Both the position numbers and the translations under genes were made by a program. This document shows positions 3,168-46,984 of a stretch of 64,000 nucleotides of DNA, one piece after another (position 1 is the first letter of the stretch; the number at the start of each line of letters is the position of its first letter). This DNA is from an uncultured bacterium (GTDB taxonomy: Bacteria > Elusimicrobiota > Elusimicrobia > Elusimicrobiales > Elusimicrobiaceae): assembly GCA_949297775.1 (NCBI GenBank), contig CASFTM010000016.1:1-64000 (forward strand), written 5' to 3'. The notes beneath the pieces were generated by a model. It was not told the DNA's origin, ran no database searches, and saw only the letters and a program-made list of their open reading frames with translations.

Positions 3168-6100
3168 TTACTTCTCTCCTGTTTCTTTGCGTTTTTGGTC
3201 AAACTCTTGGGCAATTTGTCTGGCGGAAATACCCGTACCCGCCGGAATCAAATGGCCTACAATTACGTTTTCTTTCAGGCCTTGCAATTCGTCCACCTGG
3301 CCCGTGATGGCGGCGTCCGTAAGGACTTTGGTCGTTTCTTGGAACGACGCCGCGGAAATAAACGATTCGGAAGCGAGGGACGCTTTGCTGATACCCAAAA
3401 GGATGGTTTCGGCGTCGGCTAAGCGTTTGCCTTCGGCCTTCATCTTTGCGTTTTCTCTAAGCCAGCTCGCGCGGCTTAAGATTTCGCCTTTCAGGAAATG
3501 CGTGTCTCCCGCATCCAGAATTTTCACGTTCCCCAACATCTGACGGACAATAACCTCAATATGTCTGTCGTTAATTGTAACGCCCTGCAAGCGGTACACT
3601 TCTTGGATGGCGTTTAACAGGAACTCTTGCGCTTCTTTTTCGCCCTTCACGCGCAGCACGTCGTGGGGGTCGATGGCGCCGTCGGTTAAGGCTTCGCCTA
3701 CGCCAACGTGGTCGCCTTCATATACTACAAGGTGTTTGCCCTGCGGAATGCTATACTGCTTGACCTGGTTGGTCTCTTCGTTCCGCACGACCACCTCAAT
3801 TAAACCTTTGGGCGATGTTTCCAAGCTGACGATCCCTTCAAACTCGGAGATAATCGCCGGGTTGCGGGGCCGTCTGGCTTCGAACAATTCCGCAATTCTG
3901 GGCAGACCGCCGGTGATGTCTTTGGTACCGCCCGCTTCGCGCCCGATTTTGGCAAGCACGTCGCCGGGTTCCACTTCTTCACCGTTTTCCACCATCAAAA
4001 TCGTATCAATAGGCAGCGGCAGGCTTACTTTCTTTTCCTTGCCGTCAATGCTGATACGCGGGTTTTTCTTACCCATGCGGCTCGCGGTAATTTTGCGTTC
4101 AATTACGCCCGTAACTTTGTTGCGCTCTTCCTGCAAGGTGATACCTTCAATAACGTCAGTCAGCTTCACCGTGCCCGGCGCTTCGGCCAGCACAGGGATA
4201 GAGTGCGGGTCCCACTCCGCGAGCAGGGTCCCTTTCTTGACGGTCGCTTTATCCGCGGTGTACACGGAAGCGCCGTACTGAATCTTGTATTCTTTTATTG
4301 TACCATTTCCGGCCTCTACAAAGATAGAGCCGTTTCTGGAAATACAAATTTTATTGTCGTAGCGGTTCGTGATCAGCTTAATATCTTTGAAGGTTACTTT
4401 ACCATCAATTTCCGCTACCGCCTGGCTGCGCGACAACACGCGCGAAGCCGTACCACCGATGTGGAAGGTACGTAACGTCAGCTGCGTACCCGGTTCGCCG
4501 ATGGACTGCGCCGCAATGATACCCACAGAATCGCCGGGGTTGCTCTTGGACGAAGTAGCCAAAGACAAACCATAGCACTTGGCGCACACGCCAAACGGAG
4601 CTTCGCAGGTCAGCACGGAGCGGATGCGTACGGACTCCACGCCGTATTTTTTGACTTGCTTGCTCTGTTCCAGCGTAATGAGGTCGCCTTCCTTGATGAT
4701 GGTTTTTTCTTCTTCGGTGCCGTCGGCTTTTTTCACTTTCACCACGACATCTTCCAAGCTGGTGCGGCCCAAAATACGTTCTTCAATGGGTTCCACCATT
4801 TCTTCGCCGCTCATCAAGGATTTAACCACAATCCCGTTGTGCGTGCCGCAGTCTTCTTCCGTTACTACTACATTGTGGGCCACGTCCACCAGACGGCGGG
4901 TTAAGTAACCGGCGTCGGCGGTTTTCAAGGCCGTATCGGACAAACCTTTACGACCACCGTGCGTGGAAATAAAGTATTCCAACACCGACAGCCCTTCACG
5001 GAAGTTGGCGGTAATAGGCGATTCAATAATTTCGCCCTGTCCGCCGGTCAGTTTCTTTTGCGGTTTAGCCATCAGACCGCGCATACCCGCCAGCTGGCGT
5101 ACCTGCTGGCGCGAACCGCGGGCACCGGAATCCGCCATTAAGTAGACGGAGTTAAAGCGCTGGCCGCTGTGTTCTTTGTTGGTCGGGTCGTATTTGGACT
5201 CTTCAAACTTTTTCATTTCTTTAAAGAGTTCGTTGGCGACGTCATCCGTCACGCGGGTCCAAATATCAATAACTTTGTTGTAGCGTTCGCCTTCGGTAAT
5301 GATACCGGCTTCGGCCTGGACTTGAATTTCTTTCACTTTCTTTTTGGCGTCGTCAATATATTTCTGCTTGATAGACGGAATGGTCATATCCGCAATGGAA
5401 ATAGACAAGCCGGACAGCGTGGCATAGTGATAGCCCATCTTCATAATCTTGTCCAAGAGCTGCACGGCTTCGTAGCGTCCGTACTTTTTGCTCTTGTAAC
5501 ATTCATCCACCAACGCGGCCAGCTCTTTTTTGCCAACCGTTTTGTTGATGTATTCCCAGCCTTTGGGCAACGCTTGGTTGAAAATGATGCGCCCCACGGA
5601 AGTATAATCTTTCCATTTGGAAGCGTCTTTTTCGTCTTTCGGGTCCAAACCGGGTTCGGCAATTACGTTGATGCCGCGCACTTTGATTTTGGCGTGGTAC
5701 GACAGTTTGCCGTATTCCAAGGCCACCAGCGCTTCGTCTTTGCTGCCGAAGATGGAACCTTCGCCGATATCGCCGTCTTTGATTTTGGTCAGGAAGCTTA
5801 CGCCCAACACCATATCGTGGGACGGAGCGGCAATCGGTTTGCCGGACGCCGGGGACAAAATATTGTTGGAGGCCAACATCAGCGTGCGGGCTTCCATCTG
5901 CGCTTCCAGCGAAAGCGGCACGTGCACAGCCATCTGGTCACCGTCGAAGTCAGCGTTGAAGGCGGCGCAGGTCAGCGGGTGAAGCTGAATGGCTTTACCT
6001 TCAATCAGCACCGGTTCAAACGCCTGGATACCCAAGCGGTGCAGCGTCGGAGCGCGGTTTAACAGAACCGGGTGGTTCTTGGTGACTTTTTCCAAAATAT

Positions 6101-24249: not shown

Positions 24250-24318
24250 TTGTTTTAAAAAGGGCCCAGCCTGCCAAATAGGCCTTGAAAAAGCGCTAAA
24301 CCCGCTTATAGTAATAGT

Positions 24319-24490
24319 ACTAAGTACTTGGGATCAGCCCGATTGTCCTTGGTTGCAGTTGTGAAAGCACGGCGTGTTTTCCTATTGCGTGAAGACCCGG
24401 ATACGGAGCCTCCCTAGGAAAGAGGAACATAGGTCATGATAATGACACAAATGAGCTAAACCCCCGAAATAATACGCGGGGGTTTATTTT
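24319..24490 (+). ncRNA. Candidate structured small RNA, about 170 bases, unclassified
   Basis: After the symporter terminator a new promoter appears: TTGAAA (24285-24290), 16 bases, TATAGT (24307-24312). About 140 bases later a rho-independent terminator (AAACCCCCG / CGGGGGTTT, 24458-24485, then TTATTTT) ends the unit. The interval has no reading frame or ribosome binding site but contains pairings such as CTTGGGA with TCCCTAG and TCCTA with TAGGA. Size and isolated position would fit a 6S-type RNA, but I did not find that family's core, nor SRP, tmRNA or RNase P motifs. Confidence 0.6.
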
Positions 24491-44969: not shown

Positions 44970-46147
44970 CTACTCAATAATTTTGGTTACAACGCCGGCG
45001 CCTACCGTATGACCGCCTTCGCGGATTGCAAAGCGCAAGCCTTCTTCCATAGCCACCGGAGTAATCAACTTCACTTCAATTTCAGCGTTGTCACCGGGCA
45101 TAATCATATCCATTCACCCGTCACGTCCGTCGTTCTCAAGTAGAACTGAGGTTTGTAACCAGGAGTCAACGGAGTATGGCGTCCGCCTTCTTCTTTCTTC
45201 AAAATGTACACCTGGCCCATAAAGTGTTTGTGCGGATTTACAGACTTCGGAGCCGCCAACACCTGCCCTCTTTCTACTTGCTTCTTGTCAATACCGCGCA
45301 ACAAGATACCTACGTTGTCTCCCGCAATACCTTCATCCAACAGCTTGCGGAACATTTCAATACCCGTCGCTACCGTATTCATCGTGTCTCTAAATCCAAT
45401 GATTTCCAACGCATCGCCCACGTGCACCTTGCCGCGTTCAATTCTCCCGGTCGCTACCGTTCCCCGACCCGTAATAGAGAATACGTCTTCCACCGCCATC
45501 AAGAACGGTTTGTCCGTATCGCGTTTCGGTTCCGGAATCCACGTGTCCAACGCTTCCATCAATTTGTGAATGCACGGTTCTCCCAATTCGCTCTGGTCCC
45601 CTTCAATCGCTTTCAAAGCAGACCCGCGTACAATCGGCGTGTTGTCCCGGTCAAATTCGTATTTGCCCAGCAAATCACGGATTTCTTCTTCCACCAAATC
45701 CAACAAATCTTTGTCGTCTACCAAGTCCACTTTGTTCAGGAACACTACCAGTTTCGGTACGTTCACCTGCTTGGCCAACAACACGTGTTCGCGCGTCTGC
45801 GGCATCGGACCGTCTACCGCCGATACCACCAATATCGCTCCGTCCATCTGCGCCGCACCCGTGATCATGTTCTTAATATAGTCAGCGTGTCCGGGGCAGT
45901 CAATGTGCGCATAGTGGCGGTTGTCCGTTTCGTATTCTACGTGAGATACCGCTACCGTTACAATCTTAGACGCGTCGCGTACTACACCGCCTTTCGCAAT
46001 GTCGCTGTACGCCATCGCTTTCGCTTTGCCTTCTTTAGACAATACCTTCGTAATAGCCGTGGTAAGCGTCGTCTTACCGTGGTCCACGTGACCAATCGTT
46101 CCGACGTTCACGTGCGGTTTGCTGCGGGAAAATTTTTCCTTTGCCAT
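44970..46147 (-). pseudogene. tuf: Elongation factor Tu, second copy, frameshifted
   Basis: The start at 46147 opens a good EF-Tu frame (P-loop [21 protein letters not shown]) that reaches TTDVTGE near residue 344 and then stops after W-I at 45104, short of the usual 395-400. The missing domain-3 end (MDMIMPGDN to VVTKIIE) continues in another frame to 44970. By comparison with the family about 19 bases are lost near 45111-45117. The start region also carries a 16-bp tandem duplication (46148-46163). Both defects could be real decay or assembly error in a repeated gene. Confidence 0.85.
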
Positions 46148-46219: not shown

Positions 46220-46292
46220 AGCTGGGAGTGGGAATCGAACCCACGACCTTCTCCTTACCATGGAGATGCTCTACCTACTGAGCTACCCCAGC
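46220..46292 (-). tRNA. tRNA-Thr (GGT), copy 1
   Basis: A cloverleaf with anticodon loop ATGGTAA (GGT) and T-arm GGTTCGATTCC, 60 bases before tuf. It belongs to a 78-bp exact repeat shared with the second copy. Confidence 0.96.
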
Positions 46293-46335: not shown

Positions 46336-46408
46336 AGCTGGGAGTGGGAATCGAACCCACGACCTTCTCCTTACCATGGAGATGCTCTACCTACTGAGCT
46401 ACCCCAGC
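46336..46408 (-). tRNA. tRNA-Thr (GGT), copy 2
   Basis: Sequence identical to the copy at 46220-46292; 78 bases (46334-46411 and 46218-46295) are an exact direct repeat 116 bases apart, suggesting recent duplication. Confidence 0.96.
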
Positions 46409-46430: not shown

Positions 46431-46501
46431 AGCGGGCGATGGGAATCGAACCCACGTATCAAGCTTGGAAGGCTAGTGTTCTACCATTGAACTACGCCCG
46501 C
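46431..46501 (-). tRNA. tRNA-Gly (TCC)
   Basis: Cloverleaf starting GCGGGCGTAGTTCAATGG with anticodon loop CTTCCAA (TCC). First RNA of the tRNA-tuf operon. The Gly-Thr-tuf order recalls the E. coli thrU-tyrU-glyT-thrT-tufB operon. Confidence 0.96.
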
Positions 46502-46690: not shown

Positions 46691-46721
46691 AAAAAATCCG
46701 ACCCCCGGGAGCGGGGGCCGG
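46691..46721 (-). terminator. Second terminator behind the small RNA
   Basis: On the minus strand stem TCCGGCCCCCG / CGGGGGTCGGA followed by TTTTTT. Confidence 0.85.
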
Positions 46722-46727
46722 AAAAGC

Positions 46728-46795
46728 AAAAAAGATGGGAGGCCTAGTCCCCTACAAGAGGCGTACCCTAAACCGGGTGATGGTGGCACTCCCAT
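46728..46795 (-). ncRNA. 68-base structured small RNA with its own promoter and terminator
   Basis: TTGATT (46824-46829), 16 bases, TATACT (46802-46807) predicts a start at the A of ATGGGAG (46795). This heptamer pairs exactly with CTCCCAT at 46735-46741, which is followed by CTTTTTT. The enclosed bases can form two further hairpins (ACCC/GGGT and CCTC/GGGG or GCC/GGC), giving a compact three-way junction whose closing helix is also the terminator. There is no open reading frame. I could not match it to a known family. Confidence 0.6.
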
Positions 46796-46876
46796 ATTGC
46801 TAGTATAGAATGCTTGGCAGAAAAATCAAGGCCTATTTTTAAAATTTTTTCTTTCTTCCTAAAAATATATTTTTTT

Positions 46877-46912: not shown

Positions 46913-46984
46913 GGTGCGGTGGCCAAGTGGTAAGGCGTCAGTCTGCAAAACTGATATTCGTGGGTTCGATTCCCGCCCGCACCT
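46913..46984 (+). tRNA. tRNA-Cys (GCA)
   Basis: Cloverleaf with anticodon loop CTGCAAA (GCA), acceptor GGTGCGG / CCGCACC and discriminator T, as expected for tRNA-Cys. Its own promoter and terminator flank it. Confidence 0.96.

What the first reader, a model, noticed from the sequence alone, without database searches (positions are those of the whole stretch)
46728..46829. Compact 68-base small RNA with promoter and self-terminating helix
Promoter TTGATT-16-TATACT puts the first base exactly at the 5' side of a perfect 7-bp helix whose 3' side is followed by T6. Inside are two more hairpins. The whole looks like a purposely minimal three-way-junction RNA beside a tRNA-tuf operon, with no matching family known to me.
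Basis: partly seen in the sequence, partly recalled or inferred. Interest (0 to 1): 0.6.

Follow-up and report, generated by a model that had tools for sequence, protein, structure and literature searches.

The report
New small RNA in gut Elusimicrobiaceae
A tiny (about 68-base) three-armed RNA with its own promoter is encoded next to a tRNA gene in nearly every species of one genus of gut bacteria, has kept its folded shape through many compensating mutations, matches no catalogued RNA family, and most likely works as a free-standing folded RNA whose partner is still unknown.

Summary
On the minus strand, window 46795-46728 encodes a 68-nt RNA (7-bp closing helix, two inner hairpins, then C and T6) behind a TTGATT-16-TATACT promoter. 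Nothing in Rfam 15 matches. In the 57 copies 14 of 17 base pairs show two-sided compensatory change (0 of 500 shuffles), wobble pairs favour this strand, and the promoter is kept in all 56 copies inspected. Conservation is sharp (90% inside, 33% just downstream). The downstream neighbour differs in 13 genomes, in five of which the unit is re-oriented, so it is a stand-alone gene, not a leader of tuf. It was not found in sister genera. Expression and function are not shown. I favour a trans-acting structured RNA that binds a protein, because the shape is kept while loop sequences drift and no Hfq was found. A rare extended promoter (AGGYCTTGA-N-TATANT) is shared with two further orphan RNA candidates.

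The parts
46728..46795 (-). The small RNA (68 nt): AUGGGAGUGCCACCAUCACCCGGUUUAGGGUACGCCUCUUGUAGGGGACUAGGCCUCCCAUCUUUUUU
   Evidence: homologues in 57 of 66 genus members; covariation
46785..46795 (-). P1 5' arm (AUGGGAG-U-GCC, one bulged base)
   Evidence: two-sided changes in 6 of 9 modelled P1 pairs
46735..46744 (-). P1 3' arm (GGC-CUCCCAU)
46765..46778 (-). P2 hairpin (ACCC-GGUUUA-GGGU)
   Evidence: all 4 modelled pairs show two-sided changes
46749..46761 (-). P3 hairpin (CCUCU-UGU-AGGGG)
   Evidence: all 4 modelled pairs show two-sided changes
46728..46733 (-). T6 tract after the closing helix (intrinsic-terminator-like)
   Evidence: T run of at least 5 in 40 of 56 relatives
46802..46807 (-). 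-10 element TATACT
   Evidence: a TATA-type -10 at the same place in 56 of 56 copies
46824..46829 (-). -35 element TTGATT
   Evidence: CTTGA with a 16-17 bp spacer in 56 of 56 copies
46826..46834 (-). Extended -35 element AGGCCTTGA, shared with two other orphan RNA candidates
   Evidence: 18 matches of AGGYCTTGA-N17-19-TATANT in 11 genomes against 0 for the reversed pattern; downstream sequences
46697..46722 (-). Second, stronger terminator hairpin followed by T6
   Evidence: comparable hairpins in part of the relatives
46913..46984 (+). tRNA-Cys(GCA), divergent neighbour, the steadiest syntenic partner
46431..46501 (-). tRNA-Gly(TCC), usual downstream neighbour, first gene of the tRNA-Gly/Thr/Thr/tuf cluster

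Best explanation
It is a free-standing small RNA gene, new to the catalogues searched, kept in essentially the whole genus of Elusimicrobiaceae in which the window lies. Sequence-supported steps: a conserved promoter with an extended -35 (AGGCCTTGA) sets the start at about 46795; the transcript folds into a three-way junction (P1 closing helix, P2, P3); P1 plus the T tract, backed by a second hairpin, ends it. Inferred steps: the RNA is made in quantity, acts in trans, and its working part is the folded junction, most likely as a binding platform or decoy for a protein, rather than an exposed antisense seed.
For: Two-sided compensatory changes in 14 of 17 pairs, 66 cells against a shuffled mean of 12.6, 0 of 500 shuffles reach it; slid structures collapse. 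54 of 56 copies fold better than dinucleotide shuffles by z < -1, mean z -2.3. RNA identity 0.90 and 0.81 in two clades against 0.33 and 0.36 just downstream. Promoter present in 56 of 56 at fixed spacing. Different downstream neighbours or orientation in 13 genomes, so not a leader. 54 G-U cells, which would be A-C mismatches on the other strand, against 36 A-C cells. Lengths vary by non-multiples of three and no frame is open throughout, so not a coding gene. Loop and junction sequences drift between clades while the shape is kept. No Hfq found in the genome.
Against: No transcript data and no partner identified. The UUUU-rich P2 loop is well conserved within clades and could be a seed. The Hfq negative rests on one model and one 97%-complete draft. 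One genome (G016) has tRNA-Cys without the RNA beside it.
Confidence: 0.5

Rival explanations
1. A trans-acting antisense regulator: the P2 loop (UUUU-rich), the P3 loop or the A-rich J1/2 strand pairs with target mRNAs near their start codons, helped by a chaperone other than Hfq or by none.
For: Size, own promoter and intrinsic terminator are typical of antisense sRNAs; UUUU in the P2 loop is shared by most copies of two clades.
Against: Loop and junction sequences differ between clades, and several species have unrelated P2 loops; Hfq not found. No target search was done.
Confidence: 0.27
2. A divergent form of a known housekeeping RNA (SRP RNA, 6S RNA or similar) that Rfam models miss.
For: Rfam small SRP RNA is not found in this genome, and the promoter type is shared with other stable-RNA candidates.
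Against: SRP RNA is equally unfound in sister genera that lack this RNA, so this RNA does not explain the gap; it is a 60-68 nt three-way junction without an SRP helix-8-like motif by eye; no Rfam model scores it beyond a 13-bit chance hit even at E = 10.
Confidence: 0.08
3. A cis-acting attenuator or riboswitch whose closing helix is the terminator of a downstream gene.
For: A three-way junction with P1 as terminator looks like the architecture of some riboswitches; it lies upstream of tRNA-Gly in 39 of 56 loci.
Against: In eight genomes a different protein gene follows and in five the unit faces tRNA-Cys; a second terminator commonly follows.
Confidence: 0.05
4. Only an ordinary terminator or neutral spacer with no functional RNA.
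For: GC-rich hairpin plus T run.
Against: Inner hairpins covary, the promoter is conserved at fixed spacing, and flanks diverge.
Confidence: 0.02

Closest known systems
Independently transcribed bacterial intergenic small RNAs, as a kind (e.g. Spot 42, 6C; from memory)
   Same: Own sigma-70-type promoter, intrinsic terminator, 60-110 nt, intergenic, conserved in a lineage.
   Different: No covariance-model match; the terminator stem is also the closing helix of a three-way junction that encloses the whole RNA; no Hfq found.
Purine riboswitch aptamer (three-way junction with P1 closing helix; from memory)
   Same: P1/P2/P3 three-way junction, P1 able to take part in termination.
   Different: No Rfam hit; small loops without the kissing-loop sequences; no conserved downstream gene.
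Bacterial small SRP RNA (RF00169)
   Same: Short, independently transcribed structured RNA; the canonical one is missing from the genome by model search.
   Different: SRP RNA is a rod with a GGAA-capped helix 8 (from memory); here a three-way junction; distribution does not match.

Membership tests
Any Rfam 15 family | Score at or above the family's gathering threshold | tested here: not met
   no hit on the RNA at gathering threshold; the only one at E up to 10 is RAGATH-25 with 13.1 bits (threshold 49)
tRNA / tRNA-like | Recognised by ARAGORN or Rfam tRNA | tested here: not met
   neighbours are found, the RNA is not
Structured RNA under selection | Compensatory base-pair changes beyond shuffled and slid controls | tested here: met
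   14 of 17 pairs, 0 of 500 shuffles
Free-standing small RNA gene | Own conserved promoter | tested here: met
   -35/-10 with 16-17 bp spacer in 56 of 56 copies
Free-standing small RNA gene | Intrinsic terminator | tested here: met
   T run of at least 5 in 40 of 56; second terminator hairpin in several of the others
Free-standing small RNA gene | Detected transcript | not testable with these tools
   No expression data available
Hfq-dependent antisense sRNA | Hfq in the genome | tested here: not met
   no PF17209 match in the 97%-complete genome (5 of 14 controls ring)
Hfq-dependent antisense sRNA | Conserved unpaired seed across the family | tested here: inconclusive
   P2 loop U-rich in most copies but replaced in several species
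Riboswitch / attenuator | Conserved downstream gene in cis | tested here: not met
   downstream neighbour varies, unit re-oriented in five genomes
Small SRP RNA (RF00169) | Covariance-model match | tested here: not met
Protein-binding (ribonucleoprotein) RNA | Bound protein partner | not testable with these tools
   Inference only

The most novel reading that the evidence does not exclude
A genus-specific stable RNA built as a minimal protein-binding three-way junction, expressed from a dedicated promoter class (AGGYCTTGA extended -35) together with two other orphan RNAs (about 175 and 480 nt), forming a lineage-specific non-coding RNA regulon in a bacterium without detectable Hfq.
Probability: 0.25. 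Interest if true: 0.75.

Novelty: new member of a known kind. Interest (0 to 1): 0.5.

Why it matters
I found no description of this RNA in Rfam 15 or in the papers searched. It gives this gut phylum a small, genus-wide RNA family with clean covariation and a clear boundary between a genus that has it and sister genera that lack it, so its origin and partner can be tested. The shared promoter element is a handle for finding further RNAs of the same kind; two candidates came up here.

Tried and rejected
Coding gene: rejected (indels not in threes, no frame open throughout). Opposite strand as the functional one: it folds too, but the promoter, T tract and wobble pairs favour minus. tuf or tRNA leader: rejected by synteny. 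SRP RNA substitute: rejected by distribution. Phage or plasmid element: a pattern for the window's clade has no match in viral contigs, and the DNA has none in plasmids. Presence beyond the genus: the weak hits inspected are mostly plain terminator-type hairpins and none has the promoter. Loop-loop pairing between P2 and P3: possible in some species but not in the window's clade; dropped, by eye only. Complementarity to tRNA-Cys: a 6-nt match limited to one clade; dropped, by eye only. The first DNA search found only about ten relatives; the covariance model was needed to see the rest. Paper searches gave nothing on small RNAs of this group.

Full report
What is there. On the minus strand the window reads AGGCC-TTGATT-16 nt-TATACT-AGCAAT-AUGGGAGUGCCACCAUCACCCGGUUUAGGGUACGCCUCUUGUAGGGGACUAGGCCUCCCAUCUUUUUU (the AGGCC overlaps the -35 only by adjacency, the shared element being AGGCCTTGA). 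The 68-nt stretch folds as a three-way junction: P1 AUGGGAG-u-GCC with GGC-CUCCCAU, P2 ACCC/GGGU, P3 CCUCU/AGGGG. As a single sequence this is only mildly better than shuffles, so the case depends on relatives.

Relatives. blastn found close copies in the same genus. A covariance model from ten of them found 56 of 66 genus members, 35 of 36 good-quality ones. A second model found one more, G003, and nothing convincing in the other 275 genomes of the phylum searched, nor in 24 sister-genus genomes with looser filters. The weak out-of-genus hits I inspected are mostly short GC-rich or terminator-like hairpins, and none carries the promoter. Of the nine genus members without a hit, five give no match to tRNA-Cys, two (G005, G085) match only through a tRNA-Ser, one (G019) has tRNA-Cys at a contig edge, and one (G016) has tRNA-Cys with a different neighbour. 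The own genome holds one copy.

Structure is under selection. Aligned to the model, 92.9% of cells pair; 14 of 17 pairs have two-sided changes (66 cells; shuffles average 12.6; none of 500 reaches it); sliding the partners by 1-3 columns destroys the signal. This alignment is fitted to the structure and so leans towards it, but most copies folded alone, without alignment, give the same junction, and all 56 have a negative z-score, mean -2.3. G-U cells outnumber A-C cells 54 to 36, which favours this strand. Identity falls from 0.90 inside the RNA to 0.33 just downstream in the window's clade, and from 0.81 to 0.36 in a second clade.

Promoter and ends. All 56 copies examined have CTTGA, a 16-17 bp spacer and a TATA-type -10 shortly before the helix. 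A T run of at least 5 follows P1 in 40 of 56; several of the rest have a second terminator hairpin downstream. So P1 is kept even where it is a poor terminator, which suggests that it matters to the RNA itself.

Context. In 39 of 56 loci the order is tRNA-Cys (divergent), RNA, tRNA-Gly; in five the unit faces tRNA-Cys instead, and in eight a different ORF follows. In most sister-genus loci tRNA-Cys, Gly and Thr lie on one strand with no such RNA in between. The RNA is therefore an autonomous unit that appeared in, or was kept only by, this genus. The window belongs to Elusimicrobiota: the nearest named tuf records are Elusimicrobiales/Elusimicrobiaceae MAGs, and one of these named contigs (CALUTQ010000001.1) carries the RNA. 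From memory, the sister-genus genome G102, one contig of 1,643,562 bp, has the size of Elusimicrobium minutum, and the window's genus is probably Candidatus Avelusimicrobium (lineage); neither name was tested.

A promoter class. The element AGGYCTTGA-N17-19-TATANT occurs 18 times in 11 genomes against none for the reversed pattern. Besides this RNA it precedes a conserved RNA candidate of about 175 nt (window 24314-24490) and a non-coding stretch of about 480 nt (L213), both without a convincing Rfam match; a few other matches lie before protein genes. I read it as a strong promoter form used by several stable RNAs of the genus; what reads the AGGYC part is unknown.

How it works. Shown by sequence: a conserved gene for a folded RNA. 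Inferred: transcription, abundance, trans action. The helices are constrained while the loops drift (P2 loops range from UUUU types to unrelated sequences; P3 loops include UUGUA, GUAAA, GUUAA), and Hfq was not found. I therefore favour recognition of the shape, most simply by a protein, over a seed-pairing regulator, at roughly 2:1. A cis role and a known housekeeping RNA are disfavoured by context, by distribution and by the lack of model matches.

Verdict. Real, uncatalogued, genus-wide small RNA family; mechanism open.

Noticed in passing
window 24280-24490 (+): A second unannotated RNA candidate with the same AGGCCTTGA..TATAGT promoter: a hairpin domain of about 85 nt, then GAGGAAC and a short Met-rich reading frame (MIMTQMS here; similar in relatives), then a strong terminator. 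Conserved in six genus members; no Rfam match.
   Followed up: partly
L213 1540-2025 (G000:C18, about 3507-3992): A third stretch behind the same promoter type: about 480 nt without a convincing ORF; conserved in G020 (L230); no convincing Rfam match and no tRNA or tmRNA.
   Followed up: partly
whole genomes of 21 Elusimicrobiota: The Rfam small SRP RNA model passes its cut-off in none of 21 genomes (11 of this genus, 7 of sister genera, 3 of another family of the order), although 9 of 14 control genomes pass it: SRP RNA is either very divergent or absent here.
   Followed up: no
genome of the window: No Hfq found with Pfam PF17209.
   Followed up: no
window 45104-46147 (-), break near 45108: The tuf reading frame stops at 347 aa, with the rest of EF-Tu in another frame; L097 and L099 are continuous there. 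Probably an assembly error in this draft.
   Followed up: partly
window 46220-46292 and 46336-46408 (-): Two tandem tRNA-Thr(GGT) genes before tuf; some relatives show only one, as do the sister-genus loci read.
   Followed up: no
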